A DNA stretch of 64,000 nt from Panorpa germanica (lineage: Eukaryota > Arthropoda > Insecta > Mecoptera > Panorpidae), in NCBI GenBank assembly GCA_963678705.1, contig OY783220.1, positions 9,879,001-9,943,000 of the forward strand, given 5' to 3'. Positions 1,471 to 59,394 of this stretch are shown piece after piece. The notes beneath the pieces were generated by a model. The model worked only from the letters and a program-made list of their open reading frames with translations. It was not told where the DNA came from and made no database searches. Every line of letters begins with the position of its first letter. Positions within the stretch are counted from its first letter, which is position 1. Both the position numbers and the translations under genes were made by a program.

Positions 1471-2340
1471 AGTTTATCCCGTTGCTAAGCGACGTCTGTT
1501 TTGTGTAGATGATTTGAATTCAATAAAATAATTTAATTTCAAATTTTTATTCCATTTTTAATTGTTAATTTCATAAACATTGACAGTTTTGTTTTGTTTA
1601 TTTTTAATCGTTCTTAACGTAACTTTTTGTTCTGATTTCAAATCTGCAATTTATTTTGAAGTAGATGTCTTGGTTTTCGAGATATCAGCATGTTTTGGGT
1701 AAATAATGCAGATATTCTAAAGCGGTTTCCAATTTTTGAATCAGCGTAAAAAACTACGTTAGAAGTCATGTTTAGTTTGTCAAAATAAAAAGTTGTTTTT
1801 AATTCAAAACTTTAAAGGTTATACTCTTGTTATTTTGATAAAAATAAGAAATGTTGTATCACTTAATTTATAATTGTTCTTAACGTAACTTTTTATGCTC
1901 ATTCCAAATCTGCAATTTATTTTTATATAAGTGTCTTGGTTTTGGAGATATCAGCATGTTGAGACCTAAATAATGCAGATAATTAAAAATGGTTTTCAAT
2001 TTTGGAATCAGCGTGAAAAACTAATATAAATATCATGTTTAATTTGTGAAAATAAAAAGTTGTGTTTAATTCAAAATTTTGAAGGTTATAGTCTTGTTAT
2101 TTTATAAAAATTTAACATTTTGTATCGTTTAATTTGTAATGGTTTTTAACATAACTTTTTTATGCTGTTTTAAAATCTGCAATTTATTTTTAAATACGTT
2201 TTTTGGTTTTCGAGATATCAGCATGTTAAGGCGTGAATAATATAGATATTTAAAAATGGTTTCTAATTTGGGAAACAATGTAAACAAGACTGTCAATAAC
2301 CAACAAAATAAAAATGTTAGTTTTTGTGAATTCATCAAGA
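1471..2340 (-). repeat. 266-bp tandem monomers next to a Helitron-like 3' end
   Basis: Monomers begin at about 1611, 1877 and 2143, a spacing of 266 bases, each carrying CTTAACGTAACTTTTT, AAATCTGCAATTTATTTT, GTCTTGG and GAGATATCAGCATGTT. On the minus strand, GTCGCTTAGCAACGGG near 1480-1496 resembles the hairpin-plus-G-run of the Helitron ends at 39372 and 55462. That suggests the array sits inside a Helitron, though the terminus here is degenerate (CTTTAG for CTAG). Confidence 0.55.
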
Positions 2341-25148: not shown

Positions 25149-25735
25149 CGAGGCGTGTTTTTTAAGTAAGTACCGTTTTGGAATTAAAAAAAGACGTGCA
25201 AAGATATCGCAATAATTTTATTTTTACATGAAAGCCTGTACCTTAATCTACTTTTCTACAGCCATTACAGTCTGATTCTTCATTGTATACGTAGTTTACT
25301 GAGTGTTTAAGATGCCTCCGACAATCGTGAGTCCCGCCGAGTGTGAAGTACGGGCTGTTATACGATTTCTTAGTGCTAAAGGCGTAAAACCGATCGATAT
25401 TCATCGTGAGATCTGTGAAGTTTACGGACAAAACATTATGAGTGATGGAATGGTAAGGAAATGGGTGAGAGCATTTAAAGATGGCCGCACAAATGTGCAT
25501 GATGAAAAAAGTCAAAACAGTTGTGATACAGTGGTTAACAAGTCAGGCGGCAGAATTTTATGAGGAGGGTATTCAAAAACTGGTGCCACGTTATGACAAG
25601 TGCCTCAATATTCACGGAAATTATGTAAAAAAGTAGATTAAGGTACAGGCTTTCATGTAAAAATAAAATTATTGCGATATCTTTGCACGTCTTTTTTTAA
25701 TTCCAAAACGGTACTTACTTAAAAAACACGCCTCG
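25149..25735 (+). mobile_element. Deleted mariner element, copy 2, 587 bp, inserted in a LINE
   Basis: Inverted ends of about 112 bp with a single visible mismatch are flanked by TA at 25147-25148 and 25736-25737. It has the same type of internal deletion as 7122-7729 and is about 21 bases shorter at the junction. It splits the RNase H region of the LINE at 24945-26490. Confidence 0.9.
25312..25636 (+). pseudogene. Mariner transposase remnant (N- and C-termini only)
   Basis: ATG at 25312 begins MPPTIVSPAECEVRAV. The helix-turn-helix region includes IDIHREICEVYGQNIM and MVRKWVRAFKDGRTNVHDE. The catalytic domain is absent and the C-terminal part (WLTSQAAEFYEEGIQKLV, PRYDKCLNIHGNYV, stop at 25634-25636) follows in a different frame. 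Compared with copy 1, the ERSGR linker is also lost. This copy could move only with a transposase supplied elsewhere. Confidence 0.85.
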
Positions 25736-25737
25736 TA

Positions 25738-26409
25738 TTATCCGACTCGTTATCAGTCATACAGTCGTTAAGCAGTAAGGGAATCAATACAAAATTAGAC
25801 AACAAAATTTATTATGTCAAAGAAAAAATAAATAGGGAAATAGATAAGGGCCGAAATATTAAACTAATTTGGATACCGTCACATAAGGGAATTAAGGGAA
25901 ATGAAAAAGCTGATCAAATGGCCAAGGTAGCTACTTCCTGTGATAAATATATTTCATTTTTTATAAAATCAGACATGAAAGCAGAATTAGAAAAGAATGA
26001 TATGAAAAATTGGCAAGACAAGTGGGATAATTCTGATAAAGGTAGAGAATTTTATACAATACAACCAATACTGAGACGTGAGCCAAGGTTTGCCAAACTA
26101 AAATGGCCAAGAAGATTAATTACAATGACCTCAAGACTAAGAATGAATCATACTGGAGCTCCGAAACATCTAGCAAGAAACAAAATCATTCTAAACTCTA
26201 AATGCGAATGTGGTGAAAAAGAGGCCGACCCTGACCACATTCTGTGGCAATGTAAAAATACAGCAATGGCAAGAAATGGACTTCAAAGGGCGGTGCTACA
26301 GACTTCGCAGACGCTTCCTGTTAACACCGCCTTTTTGATTGAGAAACCGAAATTTTTAACAGCAGTAGCCATGAATAGATCATTCTTGTTGTCGGGATAC
26401 AAAGTATAA
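25738..26409 (+). pseudogene. LINE ORF2 C-terminal part (RNase H end and zinc-binding tail)
   Basis: Open from the mariner junction to the stop. It carries the last RNase H motifs (SDSLSVIQSL, WIPSHKGIKGNEKAD), a basic stretch ending KLKWPRRLITMTSRLRMNH, the CxCG...HxLxxC cluster, and a C-terminus ending FLLSGYKV. An ATG at 25918 opens a 163-codon stretch, but it starts inside the domain and is not an independent gene. Confidence 0.8.
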
Positions 26410-27293: not shown

Positions 27294-29122
27294 TGTCCTT
27301 CTTTTTTAGTGGTCGATTTTTCTATTGTTGATTGAAATCTAAATGTTGACGGAGATATAGAATTTAAAAACTTGAATTGTAGTTTTAGCGCTACATATGG
27401 TCGGCCATATTTGTATGACGTGAAATGCATTTTATACGTCAGTTATTTGTCGAATGGAGTAGGTCAGTGCTGTGGTAATGTTTTGTAGCTGTTGGTAGTC
27501 GAAATAATCAAGTCAAGTCAAAAAATAATAAGTTTTTATTTTATTAATCCCTGTTACGGCAGACATAATATTGAAATTTTACTGTTCCTTGAAATAGCTG
27601 TAAATAATATTTGATAATTTGATATATAAATACATATAGGAGAGATTTATGAGCTGTAAGGTTGGTCACCTGTAAACTTGCCAGAGTTCTATTTTCAAAT
27701 AGAAATAGTCAATATGAACCATGTTTGTTTACAAAAATAACTGGTAAAATTAAAGTGATAGTGGCCCTGTATGTGGATGATTTTTTGATTTTTTCAAACA
27801 ATGATTTTGAAACAAATAAATTAAAAAGTGTATTAGGTTCAGAATTTAAGTTAAAAGACTTGGGACCTGTAAGACAATATTTAGGCATGAGAATAAATTT
27901 AGATAAAAATAAAAATGTTATTACTGTAGATCAACAACAATATATTGAACAGTTAGTTTCTAAATTTCAAATGTCTGATTGTAAGACACAAAGTACTCCG
28001 ATTGAGCCTAAATTGAATTTAGATAAGTCATCTGATAAATGTTTACCTGATGTTCCTTATCAAAAACTTATTGGAAGTCTGATGTATCTGGCAGTATTAA
28101 CAAGACCAGATATTGCTTACTGTGTTAGCTATCTCAGTCAATTTAATAGTTGTTATAGTCACATACATTGGAATTATTGTAAACGTGTATTAAGATATTT
28201 ACTGCATACTAAAAGTTATTGTTTAAAATATACCAATAATAACAATAGTAATTTACAAGGTTTTGTAGACAGTGATTGGGCAAGTGATGCTCTAGATAGA
28301 AAATCCTATACTGGATTTTGCTTTATGTTGTCAGGGTCTGCCATTTCCTGGCAAAGTAGGAAGCAGAAAACGGTTTCATTATCCAGTACTGAGGCGGAAT
28401 ACACTGCTCTTTCTGAAGCTTCAAGAGAAGCTATTTATCTAAGAAATTTAATGCATGAAATTACTGATGTATTTAATGTAATTGATTTGTATTGTGATAA
28501 CCAAAGTGCATTGAAGTTAGCCTCGAGTAGTCAGAGTCATAATAGATCCAAGCATATAGATGTGCGTTGTCATTTTATTAGAGATGTTGTAAAGAACAAC
28601 TTTGTAAAAGTTAAGTACATTCCTACTGAAGAAATGCCTGCAGATATTTTAACAAAAGGTCTTTGTCATCTGAAACATTATAAGTTTATGAATTTACTTG
28701 GCATTGTTTCTGTGTAATCATGTGTACTTAGATTATTTTGATAAGTGGGGGTATTGTAATAGGTATCAAAATATCACTACTTAGTAACTAGTAACGCCAT
28801 CTGTAATCTGTTGTGTAAAAACTTTTTCTTATGTAAAATATAGTCTGTTGCGAACTGCTAACGTGTCTTTATAAATATGCTATCTCTTTTACGCTCTATT
28901 GTATAAAAGAGATAGCAACTAGCGCTTGTGATGTCACATGTAGTTGGAATATGTACAACGTTGAATCCCTTTAATAATTAAAGAGACAAAATGACTTTTA
29001 TAATTGTTAATATCTCCTGAAATACAAGTAGTTATTAAAAAATAATTGGATATTTGAGGTTCTAGTAACCCACTTTATCAATATATAGTACAGTTTTATA
29101 GAAATTAAGACACAAGCTCATT
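27294..29122 (+). mobile_element. TIR-1 family element, copy 3, interrupted by copia fossil
   Basis: Starts AATGGCCTTGTGTCC and ends GACACAAGCTCATT. About 650 bp belongs to TIR-1, split at about 27692/28871 by the copia fragment. It carries the clearest version of the internal hairpin: GCTATCTCTTTTA at about 28879 and TAAAAGAGATAGC ending about 28917. Confidence 0.75.
27692..28870 (+). mobile_element. Ty1/copia retrotransposon fossil (3' fragment)
   Basis: Broken Ty1/copia element. The parts present are the end of reverse transcriptase (ALYVDDFLIFSNN, then KDLGPVRQYLGMRI), the RNase H region (VDSDWASDALDRKSYTGF, SLSSTEAEYTALSEA), a purine tract near 28744-28753, and what looks like the start of the 3' LTR at about 28755. 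The upstream portion of a full element is not here. It lies inside TIR-1 copy 3, so it arrived after that element. The long open coding stretch (to 28717) suggests it is not very old. Confidence 0.85.
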
Positions 29123-31185: not shown

Positions 31186-31189
31186 TAAC

Positions 31190-31305
31190 AATATATTGTA
31201 AAAATATATTATTACAATATATTATTACGATATATTATTACGATATATTATTACGATATATTGTTACAATATATTGTTACGATATATTGTTACGATATAT
31301 ATAAA
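31190..31305 (+). repeat. 13-bp tandem repeat, ACGATATATTATT
   Basis: About eight units of ATATATTATTACG / ATATATTGTTACG, with the last units switching from ATTATT to ATTGTT. Confidence 0.85.
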
Positions 31306-31979
31306 TATGTAATCAGATTACTGTAAAGGGCCTTTTACACGATCAGAATCGTGTCGTATATTATTTTTTTTTACAAATATAAAAATTAGTTTTATTATTA
31401 TTTCTATTTAAACAAGTTAATTTAAAAGTTTAAGTGAGATAAGAAGTTAGCAACATTTGCTTGTTAACTGATGGATGGTTCGGTCGTGTACCGGAGCCGA
31501 GCTGAATATATTTGAGAACCACTGCATGCTGCATGACTTAAACGTACCCAACATCGATTTAAAATCAACGTCGCTTTATATTTGGTGCTCAAGATGCAGG
31601 TCGACATCACAACAAATATGTAGGTCATTAAACTGCGAGGGGATCATAAACCGTGGCTTTAACAGCATCCTGGTACTTACCCCTTCTCCTTATTTTGCAT
31701 CCGTGTACAATAAACAGCTGATTTTGAACGCAGATTTAAAATACGTTAAGAATTTTGTTGGTGTGATCATAAATACAGTTAGTTGGCTGTACTGCGAAAT
31801 AGAACAACATTCGCAAAAAGAAGAATATCCTGCAGAACGGAAGGACATGACGCGCATATGGTACATAGCTACAGAAAAACGCTTTTAACGTTAAGAAATA
31901 TGGTAACGCCTGTCGCACATTGCAACCGAATTTCAGCGAATTTTAACCAAGCGTATACATGCTACAACGCTAAACCTAT
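31306..31979. other. Unassigned; 137-codon open stretch of uncertain value
   Basis: 31475-31888 is open from a GTG. The translation has no family I recognise, no splice context and no neighbours to support it. Confidence 0.3.
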
Positions 31980-35444: not shown

Positions 35445-37822
35445 TTAACCAAGTTCATTACTAGTTATACCAGTTTTAACCAGTTATATTTTATACAAGT
35501 TATTCCAGTTTTAACTAGTTATTCTTTATACAAGTTATACCAGTTTTAACCAGTTATACTTTATACAAGTTATACCAGTTTTAACCAGTTATTCTTTATA
35601 CAAGTTATACCAGTTTTAATCAGTTATATTTTATACAAATTATATCAGTTTTAACCAGTTATACTTTATACCAGTTTTAACCAGCTATACCAGTTATAGT
35701 TTATACAAGTTATACCAGTTTTAACCAGTTATTCTTTATACAAGTTATACCAGTTTTAACCAGTTATATTTTATACAAATTATATCAGTTTTAACCAGTT
35801 ATACTTTATACCAGTTTTAACCAGCTATACCAGTTATAGTTTATACAAGTTATACCAGTTTTAATCAGTTATATTTTATACAAATTATATCAGTTTTAAC
35901 CAGTTATACTTTATACCAGTTTTAACCAGCTATACCAGTTATAGTTTATACAAGTTATACCAGTTTTAACCAGTTATTCTTTATACAAGTTATACCAGTT
36001 TTAACCAGTTATTCTTTATACAAGTTATACCAGTTTTAACCAGTTATACTTTATACAAATTATACCAGTTTTAACCAGTTATATTTTATACAAGTTATTC
36101 CAGTTTTAACCAGTTATTCTTTATACAAGTTATACCAGTTTTAACCAGTTATACTTTATACAAGTTATACCTGTTTTAACCAGTCATACTTTATATAAGT
36201 TATACGAGTTTTAACCAGTTATACTTTATACAAATTATACCAGTTTTAACCAGTTATATTTTATACAAGTTATTCCAGTTTTAACCAGTTATTCTTTATA
36301 CAAGTTATACCAGTTTTAACCAGTTATACTTTATACAAGTTATACCTGTTTTAACCAGTCATACTTTATATAAGTTATACGAGTTTTAACCAGTTATACT
36401 TTATACAAATTATACCAGTTTTAACCAGTTATATTTTATACAAGTTATTCCAGTTTTAACCAGTTATTCTTTATACAAGTTATACCAGTTTTAACCAGTT
36501 ATACTTTATACAAGTTATACCTGTTTTAACCAGTCATACTTTATATAAGTTATACGAGTTTTAACCAGTTATACTTTATACAAATTATACCAGTTTTAAC
36601 CAGTTATATTTTATACAAGTTATTCCAGTTTTAACCAGTTATTCTTTATACAAGTTATACCAGTTTTAACCAGTTATACTTTATACAAGTTATACCTGTT
36701 TTAACCAGTCATACTTTATATAAGTTATACGAGTTTTAACCAGTTATACTTTATACAAATTATACCAGTTTTAACCAGTTATATTTTATACAAGTTATTC
36801 CAGTTTTAACCAGTTATTCTTTATACAAGTTATACCAGTTTTAACCAGTTATACTTTATACAAGTTATACCTGTTTTAACCAGTCATACTTTATATAAGT
36901 TATACGAGTTTTAACCAGTTATACTTTATACAAATTATACCAGTTTTAACCAGTTATATTTTATACAAGTTATTCCAGTTTTAACCAGTTATTCTTTATA
37001 CAAGTTATACCAGTTTTAACCAGTTATACTTTATACAAGTTATACCTGTTTTAACCAGTCATACTTTATATAAGTTATACGAGTTTTAACCAGTTATACT
37101 TTATACAAATTATACCAGTTTTAACCAGTTATATTTTATACAAGTTATTCCAGTTTTAACCAGTTATTCTTTATACAAGTTATACCAGTTTTAACCAGTT
37201 ATACTTTATACAAGTTATACCTGTTTTAACCAGTCATACTTTATATAAGTTATACGAGTTTTAACCAGTTATACTTTATACAAATTATACCAGTTTTAAC
37301 CAGTTATATTTTATACAAGTTATTCCAGTTTTAACCAGTTATTCTTTATACAAGTTATACCAGTTTTAACCAGTTATACTTTATACAAGTTATACCTGTT
37401 TTAACCAGTCATACTTTATATAAGTTATACGAGTTTTAACCAGTTATACTTTATACAAATTATACCAGTTTTAACCAGTTATATTTTATACAAGTTATTC
37501 CAGTTTTAACCAGTTATTCTTTATACAAGTTATACCAGTTTTAACCAGTTATACTTTATACAAGTTATACCTGTTTTAACCAGTCATACTTTATATAAGT
37601 TATACGAGTTTTAACCAGTTATACTTTATACAAATTATACCAGTTTTAACCAGTTATATTTTATACAAGTTATTCCAGTTTTAACCAGTTATTCTTTATA
37701 CAAGTTATACCAGTTTTAACCAGTTATACTTTATACAAGTTATACCTGTTTTAACCAGTCATACTTTATATAAGTTATACGAGTTTTAACCAGTTATACT
37801 TTATACAAATTATACCAGTTTT
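35445..37822 (+). repeat. 35-bp minisatellite with a 175-bp higher-order repeat
   Basis: Basic unit of 35 bases built from TTTTAACCAGTTATACTTTA plus TACAAGTTATACCAG. From about 36050 on, five variant units form a 175-base block. Its marker CTGTTTTAACCAGTCATAC occurs at 36171, 36346, 36521, 36696, 36871, 37046, 37221, 37396, 37571 and 37746, every 175 bases exactly, with no differences noticed between blocks. The left 600 bases are less regular and include 105-130 base spacings of a CCAGCTATACCAG variant. No unique spacers, so not CRISPR-like. Confidence 0.95.
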
Positions 37823-38756
37823 AACAAAGGTGATATTTGTTAAAAAGGATCGCTTTTCATCTACCATACTAGTTATAATACAAACTACAATTTGAAGAAG
37901 GCTTTCAATTTTAATTTTTCGTGATTTGCTAACGCGGAAGTAAGAGAGCATCAATGTTAATCCCACATTCTTCTCACAATGTAACATACATTAAATTCAA
38001 TAATTGCATATATTTTTTATCAATCTCGAGTACCTGCGAATAGAAAATTCAGTATTTCATCATTAAAATACTGATTTACTACTCGCACTTGTCAAAAGAT
38101 TTCCATCATTATTTATGAACGAAAGTAATCTTCGCGCTTCGCGGCTTCGACTAGCGTGTGGTAGATACAGACGTATCTTTTACGAGTGGTCTTTATAGCC
38201 TATAATGTCGAACCAATCGCATCCTCCTGTCCGCAGATAGTCGTTGTAAATGTAAATGTTGAATGATGGCGATAACCATAACCTAAATTCATATAAAATA
38301 TCTACTATAAAAATGGTATCCTTTTAACACAGATATTTATGTTATTTGTTGAACCCCTGCAGCTCCATCTCTCCTACTCCTGGCTCCTGGAACGAGTCCT
38401 GAGTCCTGTACGTTCACCTATAACTCAGCGAATAAAAGTGATTGACATTAGGAATAATTGCTGACAACACAACGGGGTTTGATTAATGTGAGTCCATTAT
38501 CTGTCAATTGAAGTTTCGACGGTTTTTCCACGGGTTTTTTTGTAACAATATCAATAACATTTACTCACTCCACTAATATGACGTTCGATCCATCTTGATT
38601 TCTAGTTATATCCGACATTTTTATGTTATTAGAGGATAATGCATTGATATGAACAATCTATTAAATTGTTTGGGTAACTAAAATTGAGTTCATGATCAAG
38701 AACATTAATTAATTTAAATATTAAACTAATTAAATATTATTACAACTACTATACTA
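37823..38756. other. Unassigned sequence
   Basis: The minus-strand open stretch at 37775-37987 starts in unique sequence and runs into the satellite; no family. Nothing else supported. Confidence 0.35.
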
Positions 38757-43779: not shown

Positions 43780-44455
43780 GCGTCACTATAATCACAGTAA
43801 ATCGAAAACTAATGGTCGGAATATCTTAAAATTTTGACACATATCGTTTAAAGGTTGGTACTATCTAAAAATCATATAAATTGGTCAACAGTGCGAATAG
43901 TGCAAATAGAGCGAATAGTGTGAATAGTGCAAATAGTGCAAATAGTGCAAATAGTGCGAATAGTGTAAATAGTGCAAATTGTGCGAATAGTGCAAATAGT
44001 GCGAATAGTGCGAATAGTGCGAATAGTGCGAATAGTGCAAATTGTGCGAATAGTGCAAATAGTGCGAATAGTGCGAATAGAGCGAATAGTGCGATTAGTG
44101 CAAATTGTGCGATTAGTGCAAATTGTGCGAATAGTGCGAATGGTGCAAATAGTGCGAATATTGCAAATAGTGCAAATTGTGCAAATAGTGCGAATAGTGC
44201 AAATAGTGCAAATAGTGCGAATAGTGCGAATAGTGCAAATTGTGCGAATAGTGCAAATAGTGCGAATAGTGCGAATAGAGCGAATAGTGCGATTAGTGCA
44301 AATTGTGCGAATAGTGCGAATGGTGCAAATAGAGCGAATAGTGCGAATAGTTCGAATAGTACGATCAGTGCGAATAACGCGAATAATGCAAATTTGTCAA
44401 TAGTGACGTCATCTATATGGTTCTATCCAAAAAATTTATTGAATGATGTTTTAAA
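43780..44455 (+). repeat. Dispersed repeat R7 carrying a 9-bp minisatellite
   Basis: The left half (GTCGGAATATC, ATCGTTTAAAGGTTGGTACT) and right half (GTCAATAGTGACGTCATCTA, TTATTGAATGATG) match 8800-8960, separated here by the 9-bp array. Confidence 0.6.
43886..44395 (+). repeat. 9-bp minisatellite, unit AATAGTGCG/AATAGTGCA
   Basis: About 56 units of AATAGTGCR with scattered variants (AATAGAGCG, ATTAGTGCG, AATTGTGCG, AATGGTGCR). Because the unit length is a multiple of three, two frames stay open and read as Asn-Ser-Ala and Ile-Val-Arg repeats; these are not genes. Confidence 0.95.
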
Positions 44456-46653
44456 ATAGTTAAATGAATACTTTTCTTCACCATCTTACTTGTGAAAATC
44501 TTCTTAGTCAAGTGCCATGTTGCAAATGATAGACCAATAGTCTTTGAGCACTTAACCGTGTCGTATTTATGGTTTGTAAATGGTAAAGGGTCAAAATGTC
44601 TCTGAATCACGTGATTCAACGGTTTTCTTACATCTTGTACTATCGCGTGATGTACGAGTATGTTATGTGTGTAAATGTTGTAAATTTATCGTCTTGAATA
44701 CTGTACAACTATTATTAAGCAACTCAACAGTTCGTTGTGTAGAACACTTCTAATATAACATTCCCTTGGTTGGTAGTACAAGTGGTACCCTTGTTGTGGT
44801 CAACACTTTGCATACTATTTAGGAATTTCTAAGATGGAAACAGTGGTGGTGGTGGTGTCTTTGAAACTTTGAAACATTTAACCAGATTTCTATCAAAGTC
44901 GTTGTGCGTTTTACAGATGGAGTAGACAGTTACAAAACAATATAATTGATATGGTCGTCTGTTTTTAATTGATTTACGTATAGTGTTACAATAAAACATG
45001 CTTGCAATTGGAATATTTCTAATAGGGGCGGGACGATGTTGTTTTGACTGTATCTGTACTACTAATAACGAAAAATACCGTTGTATAACGTGTAATTTGT
45101 AGCCTAATATAATTTGTAATTAATCAAACAATAAGTAAAGTTTTATTAAAATATAAATTCCATGGATGGACCGCATCTGATAAATATTATCTCCAACACA
45201 AATATGGTAGTGACATTAGAGAATGTTAAATTTCCCTAAAATCCATTTTAAATTACAGTTTGGTGTTATCTTAATGGAATTTGAATATGTTACGTTTAGC
45301 ATACCGGAATCATCTATGCAATTAAGGGTCATATCGGTCTATAATAACTAACATACCGCTGCGATGATGAAGCACACAGGATTCTGGGTTGCTGATATAC
45401 CTAGTCCATAGCGAGAGAGAAGGAGAAATTGAATCTGAATATTGCATACCTTGATTTAACAATGATTTAATATTATAATGCGGTCAATGAGCTTCTTAAC
45501 GGATGGTGCATGTGTAGGTACATGAATGATTGCACATAGTAAGGTCTTTTTAGATGATCAGATCAGATGCGAAATCGTAGATAGATACAATATCGTGGGT
45601 AGATATGATACTACTATTATAATGTTGACTGCAGATTACCCTACGTCGTATTTTTATATATTAAGTAGGTGTATATACTGGCACAATTTATGCGAACGGT
45701 GCGAATAGTGCAAATAGTGCAAATAGTGCGAATAGTGAGAATGGTGCGAATAGTGCGAATACACAATTATTAATATTCAAACATTACTCTTTGATTGCGC
45801 AATTTTTTTTTTAAATTAGTAAATAAAAATTAGATTTGTAAATTTTGTACCAAAGATAATAAGAAACATAATAAGTTGCGTGTTAAGTATTTGAATATGA
45901 AGGGTTAGCTAACTAACCCATATTATGATTGTAATCCAATATAGGAGTATACTACAACCCTTAATTAATCGGATTGTATCCCTGTCCGACATATAATGTT
46001 GTTAAAGCTGTAACTTCTGTCGTATCTGTACGAAACGCATCGTACGAAGTAAGTAAGACCATCCCACACTTGACATTTCTAAAAGTAATTGGAACAATCG
46101 ACAGTTAACTTAATTGCGCTTGAGTTCTGTAGGTTCCTTTAATTAAATGGTACGTGTTTTTAATTAAAATTAAAGACCCGCATAGAATAGGGGACACACT
46201 TCGTTTCCTGGATGAGCAGATGATTTATACAGCGTGGGAACACCTTGGTGAAATTAATGGGCTTCGTCTGATTAGCGTAATTAGAAAAATTAAGTAGTTA
46301 AAAATGAGAAATAAATGTTTTATCAAAATGATATTTCAAGGAAACATGGATTGCTAAAATTAACATTCTAATTTAAGTTCATTTATTTAATATTTACGTG
46401 GGCAGTGAAAATATATTCAAAACAAGATCTTACTCGAATTATCTTGAGAATTGAATCTTTGCAGAAGTCTCTGGATGAATACAAATCTTAAGCAGTTCAT
46501 CTTATTTAATATTCACTGGTGAAGAAGTTTGTTTATATCAAGAAATTCGTTATGACTCACTGTATGCCATACTTGAACAAAATTCCACGTTAAATAAAAC
46601 AGAAATTTGCATAAGATTACTTCTGGAAGTTTTTCTTATAATTATATGTAAGA
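44456..46653. other. Unassigned sequence apart from the short 9-bp array
   Basis: Short open stretches at 44413-44619 (-) and 45526-45708 (+) are unrecognised; the latter runs into the 9-bp array. Confidence 0.35.
45691..45761 (+). repeat. Short satellite array of the same 9-bp unit
   Basis: About seven to eight units of GCGAATAGT/GCAAATAGT, 1.3 kb downstream of the main array, without the R7 flanks. Confidence 0.85.
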
Positions 46654-47880: not shown

Positions 47881-47916
47881 TAAAACTAAAAGCCTTGGGT
47901 GGTCTATTTACTCAAA

Positions 47917-50900
47917 ATGTCAGACATAAACTTAAATATTCTCTTTGAAGTCTCTCCAATAATATTAGCAACAAACATTTTCGGATTTCTTCCATTTTCC
48001 TACGAGAAAAGATTAAATAATTTTCGTTTATCAAGATTCTATCTTTTGACAATGATCTTCTGGTATTCTTACTACTACTGTTGCTTCTATTTCTTCTTGC
48101 AGAATATTCTAAGCATAGACGGGGAAGATATTTACATGATCGGGTTGTGGATACAACACATGTCTAGATTTTCCTTAATGTCCGCATCGTTATTCTACAC
48201 AATTTTGGGCAGAAAACAAAAAGGAAGAACAGTTGCCTTAATGGCTGATGTTGACAGCAAATTTAAAGAACTTGGGATCAAGATTCCTTACAACGAGAAC
48301 AAGAAGAAATGTTTTATCCAGTTAAGTGTTCTGTTAGCAACATACTTCACATTCGCCAGTTGCGATTGGATTGTTTTTTATCAAGTCTCAAGATCTATCT
48401 CTTCTTCTTTGATTTGTGGATTCTATCTGCTACCATATCTCCATATACTTCTAACAAAACTTAAATTTCTAAACATCATGCATTTATTGAAGCAACGATA
48501 TAGACTTCTGAGTGATCTACTAATGGAAATAGGAAGAGAATCAATCAATGGAAGTTTGAATTTGGAAGAACTGCAGCGGCTTAAGTCTCTGTGTAAAGTG
48601 TTTGACCTTCTGAACGAACTTTGTGGGGAGATTAATAAGATGTATTCCTTGCAACTCTTCCTTGGGATTGTCGTTATTTTTACGTTACTTCTGTTTGACA
48701 CGAATGGGAACATTAAGAGGTTAGCTCTGACGAAACAGTCGGCTTTTTCACTTAGCCAGTTGATTAGTATTTCTGCGCTGGTTTGGGAAATATTTATAGC
48801 AGCATCCCTTGTCTGCGTTGTCTTTATAACGGAACGAACAGTGGAACAGGTTTGAATACTTTGCTAATAATACTTAGGATGTTAAGAAATAAATATAAAG
48901 GATCTTGCAAGACCTAAGACCTAATATTCGTATATACTTATGTAACGAGAACTAATGCTAAAACGTAGATAGAAATTCGATAATCAATTTTAAAATGTCA
49001 AGACTAAATGCAAATAGATTGGTGAACAGTGGAATTAAATTAGACTTAGTTGGAGGTTTTGTAGTAAAGAAAAATACATTTCTTTTTGGACTGTTTCATA
49101 AAATAACCTTATAGAGTAAGATTAAGTTACTAATTACTTTCAAATAAAATTCTACATTTTATATACACATTTACTAATATCTTAAGAAATATAACCCACC
49201 TTCTGAAAAGTAACGATGCGCCACTGGATTGACCATATCAATTAGATACTCTACTCTACTTTTTGTTTTTAATTTCCGTGTCAGCGATTTTAACGAAATT
49301 AACTAACAGTATCAAAAACTATTTTTAAAATCCCAAAGCAACTGACGACAGTTTAAAGACATCTTGACCCACTGCTCAAACCACTCAAAAGTTAACTAAA
49401 CTACAAATTGTATAGAAAAATACATTACTAGATCCATTAGATCCTTTTGGCATGATATCCAACCTGTTTACGAGCCAAAAACTTTTTAATTGATGATCGA
49501 GGTTCTCTCTGCAAAGTTTCAATTGGATTATGATATATATGTATGTAACGTAATGACATTTAAACTTTGCAAACAGATAAACAGAAACGTAATAAACATC
49601 AAACGGTTTAATTTGTTGTGTTAAAAGACAAGATTGCTAATTATTTTATTATTTAATTTTGGTTTTAATGTTTGCAAAAACATTTCCAAAATCTATTACA
49701 TGATGTATAGTGAAATGAAAAGTACTTATTATTATTTTATTGTAATGTTTTTGCCATTAGGTACTCCTCCTGCTATTCTCTCTCCTTTTCTACTCTGCCC
49801 TTCATTCTTTTTCCTCGCTCCTTCTCTCTATATCCGCCATCCACCGTTATCCTTCACTGCCTCCCTTTAATAACTGCACAATCTTCTTTTAATTTTTTTA
49901 CTTTTTTCTCACATCAATACTTAATTTGCTCCTTCGTTTCTATCTCTCTCTAGCACACCCTACATAACCTATTCTCTCTATTTTCTCAGTATCTGCTGTC
50001 TTTCTCTTCGTTTCACAATCTAAATCTTGCGTTTCTGTTAATGTTCCTTCCCTCTTTTTCCCCTATGTATTACGGTATCTCTCTTTCTCCTAAATGATCT
50101 TGTATTTCCTATTATGATTTTTTTTCCATTCTTTCCTGCTGCTGTATCTCTCTGTCTATACTCCTTGGCTCCTCTTCCACACTTTTGCCTACTTCTCTTC
50201 TCTGTCGCAATTCCGTTCCTTTCAAAGTACTCCTCCCTCTTTTTTGTTCATCCTTTTCCTCCCTCCTTGAATTAAAAAGTATTCAATATGGAAAGTGAAG
50301 GCACCAATATAGATAATTGTTTCAAGCTTGCTACAAGCTAATTTCGAAGTTCATTTTCTGCCTCACATAGAAATTAGTACACGTAAAAGTATAGTTATCC
50401 CTTTCCGTCATTGTCCTTGATGGTTTGACAGCTGCATAATTAATATTTTCGTTTTTAAGTCTAACTTTACATATGTAAATTTAATTCAACAGAACAGCTA
50501 AGCCACTGGTTACATTTATAGTTATGTTTTAACTTCCAGGCTCGTCGAACCGCCATCTTTCTGCATCGTTTCATGAGACAAGTTCAACTGGACACGGCAA
50601 CGCTGGATAATCTCAAAGGAATTTCATTAAAATTTCATCGACATCCGGTTCAGTTTTCAGTGTGTGGTTTGTTCCCTTTGAACTACACGTTACTGCAAGC
50701 TGTAAGTTTTAACTTTTAACTGATGGTGAATATGCATACCGTCCGTACTAACGGGTTGTTAACTAAATGGAACTTTGAATTCATTTGGAACGTTCGAAAA
50801 ATTAATTTGTCACTATTTGAGAAACAAAAGCGTTTAAAACATAAATATTGACTTAAGGTAGTTATCGTGCTGTAAGGTAATATATTTTTGTACAATTATA

Positions 50901-58356: not shown

Positions 58357-59394
58357 CAGCGGTTCTCAAACTTTTTACTTCGAGCCCCCCTGCATAATCC
58401 AGCTGTAAGCCGGGCCCCCCTACATGTAAGCGTACTATATGTTATATTATAAGGGAGTCGCATTTGACATTTTACTGTCAATTTTTATTTAGTTAAGTTT
58501 TGCACATTCTATGCATACTGTAATGGGGCAATAGATTTAATCGTAATCAACAACAAATTCTATACAAAGAATTACAATTTATGTAGGTATTTTAGCTACT
58601 ATTTTACATAATTGTTATTTGTAACTAAAAGCAATAATAATAAAAAGAGCTTCAGTGTGAAAGATGTGCTTATTTTTTTCTGCGCATAGTTTCTTGAAAC
58701 GCGGTGTTAGTTCTGATAACGCTACTCTGAGTTCCTTGGTCACATCCAGTCTTGAGCGATATTTACTCTTCATGGCAGCTAGAACAGAAAATCCTGTTTC
58801 ACAAGAGTGAGTGAGTATTGCGAATGGAGTGAGTATTTTCAATGCCCTTTCACTCAAAATTGGGTGTTCCTTTTGTACACCAATCCAGAAGGATGTGAGA
58901 GAAGATTCTTTAAACTTCATTTCAAGCCCAGTGTCACCTTGGAGGTCAATGAAATTTTTTTTTTCCTTCATGTTGAGGGAGCACTCATCGACTGATGGTT
59001 TGAACGGGTTTTGAATACATGCCAGACCATCCAAGTTCTCATTAAAATATTTTTTAAAACGAGATTTGAGGATTTCTAAGTGTTTAAGAAACTGTCACTT
59101 TTCAGACCGCCCTCGTACAAACTTAGCTTCATTACAAAGCTTTTCACCTTTTCAGTCTTGCAGAAGGTTTGCAACTTATTTTTGTATTTTCTGATAAACT
59201 AAAAAAAATAAAATGTTCGGCGCTCTTACGACGTTGACTAAAAATTATAAACTTGTTGTAATTTCAAAAAATAAAAAGTTTGCTTTATTATTTTGTAAGT
59301 AAATTTAATTAATTTTTCTACCAAGCTTTGGGCCCCCCCTGAGCCTTCATTGCGCCCCCCTTAGGGGTCGCGCCCCACACTTTGAGAATCGCTG
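58357..59394 (-). mobile_element. hAT transposon deletion derivative, 1038 bp
   Basis: Terminal repeats CAGCGGTTCTCAAA and TTTGAGAATCGCTG (inverse with one mismatch) are flanked by an exact 8-bp duplication CATTACTG at 58349-58356 and 59395-59402, diagnostic of hAT. Subterminal G/C-rich runs (GGGCCCCCCT type) are present at both ends. Only the transposase C-terminus remains inside. Confidence 0.9.
58615..59095 (-). pseudogene. hAT transposase C-terminal dimerisation domain remnant
   Basis: About 160 residues continuing from QFLKHLEILKSRFKKYF through ENLDGLACIQNPFKPSV, SSLTSFWIGVQKEHPIL, LKILTPFAILTHSCETGFSV and LAAMKSKYRSRLDVTKEL to a stop at 58615. This is the hAT C-terminal region seen in SCAND3/ZBED5-like transposase-derived proteins (the CE-GFS, K-K-RSRL pattern). 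BED finger and catalytic core are absent, so it cannot encode a working transposase. A host-domesticated gene is unlikely because it sits between intact TIRs with a target duplication. Confidence 0.85.

What the first reader, a model, noticed from the sequence alone, without database searches (positions are those of the whole stretch)
35445..37822. Satellite with an exact 175-bp (5 x 35 bp) higher-order repeat grown from an irregular flank
The marker CTGTTTTAACCAGTCATAC recurs ten times at exactly 175-base steps with no differences noticed between blocks, while the left ~600 bases show the same 35-bp unit in irregular order. This looks like a small-scale version of centromere-style higher-order repeats, with an older disordered edge and a recently homogenised core. 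The 35-bp unit itself contains shorter AGTTNTAC sub-repeats.
Basis: seen in the sequence. Interest (0 to 1): 0.72.

Follow-up and report, generated by a model that had tools for sequence, protein, structure and literature searches.

The report
Single-locus minisatellite with five-unit blocks
A 2.4-kb stretch of DNA in what looks like an insect chromosome is a run of 35-base repeats, the right three quarters of which is one five-unit block repeated about ten times almost letter for letter; it is a tidy but ordinary local repeat, with nothing that points to a centromere.

Summary
Window 35459-37825 is a tandem array of about 67.6 copies of a 35-bp unit. From 36032 to 37825 it repeats every 175 bp without a mismatch (run of 1619 lag-175 identities), while the five units of a block differ from each other by 1-5 of 35 bases (mean 9.1%). 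That is a real higher-order repeat (HOR). In the 464-Mb assembly the unit was found at this locus only: 67 of 82 pattern hits lie here, and the other 15 equal chance (reversed-pattern control 16). The locus is interstitial (9.91 of 14.1 Mb) with near-single-copy flanks. It is best called a minisatellite, not a satellite family or small centromere. The "irregular, older" left edge is not disordered: it holds a second small HOR (140-105-140 bp, units of 35/26/44 bp) whose 105-bp parts differ by 0-1 base, so divergence does not show it to be older. Most likely this is neutral local amplification in three tiers (about 9, 35, and 105/140/175 bp) by slippage or unequal exchange. Known kind, low interest.

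The parts
35459..37825 (.). whole tandem array of a 35-bp unit, about 67.6 copies
   Evidence: TRF; 68 anchors / 67 intervals
35459..35610. leftmost partial unit and four 35-bp units (kinds 0,1,2,3)
   Evidence: unit decomposition
35611..35995 (.). second, smaller higher-order repeat: blocks of 140, 105 and 140 bp made of 35-, 26- and 44-bp units (kinds 4-5-6-3, 7-5-6, 4-5-6-3); the 105-bp parts differ by 0-1 bases
35996..36030 (.). one further unit of kind 3 between the two higher-order domains
36031..36205 (.). first 175-bp block (kinds 8-0-3-2-9); differs from the others only at its first base
36032..37825 (.). exact 175-bp higher-order repeat, five 35-bp units per block, no mismatch
   Evidence: 1619 lag-175 identities
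37781..37825 (.). partial 45-bp terminal block; sharp right edge
   Evidence: flank alignments no better than Markov-simulated sequence

Best explanation
A single-locus, non-coding minisatellite that grew in place in three steps: a motif of about 9 bp was duplicated and diverged into a 35-bp unit; the unit was multiplied and its copies acquired point differences and 9-bp losses or gains (26- and 44-bp units); then runs of neighbouring units were copied as blocks, giving a small 105/140-bp HOR on the left and a 175-bp HOR on the right, the latter amplified to about ten near-identical copies recently. Copying is by out-of-register exchange between sister chromatids or by replication slippage, with gene conversion as a possible homogeniser. 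The layout of the units is shown; the order of the steps, the recency and the enzymatic mechanism are inferred. No function is needed to explain it.
For: Block identity against 9.1% mean unit divergence. The 26- and 44-bp units are 35 minus and plus 9 (lengths; that the 9 bp are one subunit is read by eye). Unit found at one locus. Each ~500-bp flank has no second match longer than 84 bp (the tool calls its counts lower bounds), so no repeated element that carries the array was recognised. No ORF of 50 or more codons, stop to stop, lies inside the array; the one that touches it overlaps its last 48 bp. One block folded as single-stranded DNA shows no special structure (z 0.88; 163 of 200 shuffles fold as well). 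The first block differs only at its left-most base, as expected of an array edge. Longer units born from shorter ones, and HORs as monomers amplified together, are described in PMC5615363 and PMC8122249 (passages seen).
Against: No population, read or outgroup data: recent growth rests on identity within one assembly. Slippage, unequal exchange, gene conversion and rolling-circle re-insertion cannot be told apart from one allele. The number of blocks may be an assembly estimate. Whether the locus is intergenic or intronic was not settled.
Confidence: 0.85

Rival explanations
1. A small satellite of centromeric or heterochromatic type, or an outlier of a larger satellite family whose main arrays are elsewhere.
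For: The HOR architecture (identical blocks, diverged subunits) is like that of alpha satellite; sequence missing from the assembly cannot be searched; short satellite arrays in euchromatin are known (PMC5615363, passage seen).
Against: No second array in 464 Mb: 15 pattern hits outside (the closest with 1 mismatch) against 16 for the reversed pattern; the 175-mer matched only here (which scores best candidates only). Ten of the 15 outside hits were fetched and score 18-29 against 99 for a stretch of the array; the best, L059 at 29, is reached by 5 of 400 implanted controls, not remarkable for the best of ten. The other five were not read. The locus is interstitial, 9.91 of 14.1 Mb.
Confidence: 0.04
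2. Assembly artefact: the ten identical blocks are a mis-expanded or collapsed version of a more variable array.
For: Tandem repeats are a known source of assembly error (review PMC6868369, abstract and outline seen); raw reads are not available here.
Against: The 1.8-kb core lies inside a 14.1-Mb contig and is short enough for one long read (general knowledge; the read type is unknown). An artefact could change the number of blocks but would hardly create five distinct subunits or the separate left HOR.
Confidence: 0.06
3. The array has a function, for example as a regulatory or small-RNA-producing locus, and is kept homogeneous by selection.
For: Some insect satellites make small RNAs (recalled, no call); the core is strictly homogeneous.
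Against: Homogeneity alone is expected of recent amplification. No Rfam match at gathering score in the window, no special fold of one block, no long ORF within it. No expression or conservation data either way.
Confidence: 0.04
4. The array is the internal tandem repeat of a transposable element.
For: Short bits of both flanks recur elsewhere: right flank on C9 (84 bp, 77%) and C19 (54 bp, 83%), left flank on C12 (62 bp, 82%).
Against: TRF lists no 35-bp array at these three places (L010/L048 overlap on C9, L011, L013). Inverted-repeat pairs that span the array are weak (28 nt at 71%, 22 nt at 73%, 18 nt at 78%) and do not sit at its edges.
Confidence: 0.03

Closest known systems
Minisatellites / VNTRs (10-100 bp units in PMC5615363; arrays 0.5-30 kb, euchromatic, in PMC8122249; passages seen)
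   Same: 35-bp unit, 2.4 kb, interstitial single locus, internal variant units
   Different: A strict 175-bp higher-order period and a second 105/140-bp one; whether that is unusual for minisatellites was not measured. Length variation between individuals not tested.
Alpha-satellite type higher-order repeats
   Same: Blocks of several diverged monomers amplified together (97-100% between blocks in PMC8122249, passage seen; 100% here apart from one edge base)
   Different: No CENP-A evidence, one 2.4-kb locus, 35-bp unit, subunits about 91% alike instead of about 70%
Insect satellites with HORs (Drosophila ananassae subgroup, monomers 99-411 bp, stretches up to 2 Mb; PMC11917152, passages seen)
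   Same: HOR organisation in an insect genome
   Different: Those are large pericentromeric domains; this is one short interstitial array

Membership tests
Minisatellite / VNTR | tandem unit of roughly 10-100 bp, array 0.5-30 kb | tested here: met
   35 bp, 2367 bp
Minisatellite / VNTR | euchromatic location | tested here: inconclusive
   Interstitial in a 14.1-Mb contig with near-single-copy flanks and a receptor ORF about 10 kb away; chromatin state not testable
Minisatellite / VNTR | length variation between individuals | not testable with these tools
   only one assembly held
Higher-order repeat organisation | multi-monomer block far more alike between blocks than monomers within a block | tested here: met
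   run of 1619 lag-175 identities against 9.1% between monomers
Satellite DNA family / centromeric satellite | hundreds to thousands of units in long arrays, usually in heterochromatin | tested here: not met
   one array of about 68 units found in 464 Mb; unassembled sequence not covered
Centromeric satellite | CENP-A or kinetochore association | not testable with these tools
   no ChIP data
Transposable element with internal tandem repeats | dispersed copies sharing flanks or termini | tested here: not met
   flanks without a second match longer than 84 bp (lower-bound search); only weak inverted repeats across the array

The most novel reading that the evidence does not exclude
A satellite caught at birth: one locus that still holds all its steps (9-bp motif, 35-bp unit, variant units, a first small HOR, and an exact ten-copy HOR with a sharp edge), in which the 175-bp block has become the favoured unit of amplification, perhaps because it is near the DNA length of one nucleosome repeat (recalled), and may spread later.
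Probability: 0.08. Interest if true: 0.4.

Novelty: new member of a known kind. Interest (0 to 1): 0.18.

Why it matters
It is a clean, readable example of higher-order repeats arising by what looks like ordinary local turnover at a 2-kb locus, with nothing that points to a centromere. This fits Smith's argument, as told in PMC8122249 (passage seen), that unconstrained DNA tends to become repetitive by unequal exchange. By itself it changes nothing; it would probably serve as a polymorphic marker (inference).

Tried and rejected
Coding repeat: rejected, no ORF of at least 50 codons runs inside the array. Structured RNA or hairpin: not supported, no Rfam match in the window, fold z-score 0.88 for one block. 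Virus: the 20-base core has no exact match in viral contigs (weak test, and records near the window's own genome may be left out there). Dispersed family or lone ancestral unit: two-mismatch pattern gives chance-level hits outside (15 against 16); 10 of the 15 were read, 5 were not; the best, L059, scores 29, above the 95% point (26) of 400 implanted controls, 5 of which reach it. Decayed units in the flanks: none; in 8 tests (two lengths, two flanks, two strands) 56 to 209 of 300 Markov-simulated sequences score as high. Taxon clue: six-copy exact TTAGG and TCAGG have no match in the assembly, so the order of insect stays unknown. Gene context: Pfam scan of 7 chosen ORFs only, of 260 ORFs of 50 or more codons in the window; an intron around the array is not excluded. 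How common such arrays are: TRF on 18 sampled 10-kb stretches (15 chosen without regard to content, 2 near the window, 1 for a flank match) found one array of at least 300 bp with period 7 or more, and none of 1 kb; too small a sample for a rate. An idea that the founder block carries five clustered changes (one search shows five differences in the phase starting at 35996) was dropped: that phase takes in a unit outside the exact period; in phase 36031 one difference remains. A literature search on variant repeat mapping gave nothing used.

Full report
The observation. TRF finds one array at 35459-37825 with period 35 (67.6 copies, 89% matches) and 175 (13.5 copies, 96% matches). Cutting it at the conserved CAGTTTTAA-type anchor gives 68 anchors and 67 units of 11 kinds. 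From the left the kinds are 0-1-2-3, then 4-5-6-3, 7-5-6, 4-5-6-3, 3, then 8-0-3-2-9 and nine times 10-0-3-2-9, then 10 and a partial unit. The period of 175 is exact from 36032 to 37825: 1619 successive identities. In phase 36031 there are ten blocks plus 45 bp, and the single difference is the first base of the first block. The five units of a block differ from one another by 1 to 5 of 35 bases, mean 9.1%.

The left part. It is not disordered. Units of 26 and 44 bp, 35 minus and plus 9, stand side by side, and 35+26+44 = 105 bp. Blocks of 140, 105 and 140 bp follow each other at 35611-35995, and their 105-bp parts differ by 0 or 1 base. So a second, smaller higher-order repeat lies there, nearly as homogeneous as the core. 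Divergence does not show this edge to be older. What is shown is that unit kinds 0, 2 and 3 of the core also occur on the left, while kinds 9 and 10 occur only in the core, with kind 8 (one base from kind 10) at its left edge. The natural reading is that the core grew from a run of flank-like units (inference).

The unit. It divides into CAGTTTTAAC, CAGTTATAC, TTTATAC and AAGTTATAC (my split; the 9-mer CAGTTATAC matches 7, 9 and 8 of 9 at unit positions 1, 11 and 27). The 26- and 44-bp units appear to have lost or gained one such 9-bp piece (lengths; assignment by eye). Three tiers are thus visible: about 9, 35 and 105/140/175 bp.

The genome. The window is C17:9879001-9943000 of an assembly of 464,208,970 bp in 249 contigs; C17 is 14,118,734 bp. 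The 175-mer matched only at this locus, 15 matches, all in the array (that search scores the best candidates and skips very common words). A 19-base core with up to two mismatches gives 82 hits, of which I count 67 in the array and 15 elsewhere, against 16 for the reversed pattern; the closest outside hit has one mismatch. Ten of these 15 were read and score 18-29 against the unit, an array stretch 99. Both flanks of about 500 bp match only themselves plus pieces of 54-84 bp at 77-83% identity on three other contigs. Of seven ORFs scanned against Pfam, those at 47890-48855 (7tm_7 chemosensory receptor, E 1.6e-13), 27653-28717 (RVT_2, 1.2e-22) and 25723-26409 (RNase H, 1.5e-6) pass the curated cut-off. 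The 7tm_7 family points to an insect or other arthropod (recalled). No gene was found across the array, but exons were not searched for thoroughly, so an intron is not excluded. Exact six-copy TTAGG and TCAGG are absent.

Age. With no difference in about 1795 bp, a mutation rate of 2.9e-9 per generation (recalled, an insect value) and independent copies since amplification, the 95% upper bound is about 580,000 generations. This is a bound under a crude model; continuing homogenisation would hide any age.

Mechanism. The best reading is neutral local growth: duplication of a short motif, divergence, then block copying by out-of-register exchange or slippage. HORs as co-amplified blocks of monomers, and longer units born from shorter ones, are described in PMC5615363 and PMC8122249 (passages seen). 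Which process made it cannot be told from one allele. Nothing seen points to a function: no ORF of at least 50 codons inside it, no Rfam family, no fold beyond shuffles for one block.

How usual. In 18 sampled 10-kb stretches of the same genome TRF finds one array of at least 300 bp (period 7 or more) and none of 1 kb, so a 2.4-kb array is not common in such a sample, but the sample is small and says nothing on how often long arrays have HORs.

Verdict. By the definitions in those reviews (unit 10-100 bp, array 0.5-30 kb) this is a minisatellite with a higher-order organisation that is neat but of a known kind. The centromere analogy holds for the pattern only. Papers were searched five times (listings); I saw passages of three papers and the abstract and outline of one. 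I make no claim that this locus is or is not in print. Interest is low.

Noticed in passing
window 43890-44393 (and 45691-45761): A second tandem array, 9-bp unit AGTGCGAAT with point variants; best higher-order lag tested is 63 bp (88.9% identity; other multiples of 9 up to 126 give 84-87%). Unlike the 35-bp array its triple unit is dispersed: 23 exact hits on 7 contigs, 2 of them in this array, reversed-pattern control 0.
   Followed up: partly
window 1562-2274: Tandem duplication of a 267-bp unit, 2.7 copies, 81% matches.
   Followed up: no
window 31188-31300: Array of the palindrome-like 13-mer ACAATATATTGTT, 8.7 copies, 92% matches.
   Followed up: no
whole assembly G000: No exact (TTAGG)6 or (TCAGG)6, although contigs reach 48 Mb: another telomere repeat, or chromosome ends not assembled.
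   Followed up: no
window 58615-59094 (-): ORF with a match to the hAT dimerisation domain just under the curated cut-off (E 0.00028, 21.1 bits against 21.4).
   Followed up: no
window 31472-31888 (+): ORF of 138 aa with a weak Ski/Sno/Dac domain match below the curated cut-off (E 0.0043, 17.2 bits against 24.5), likely chance.
   Followed up: no
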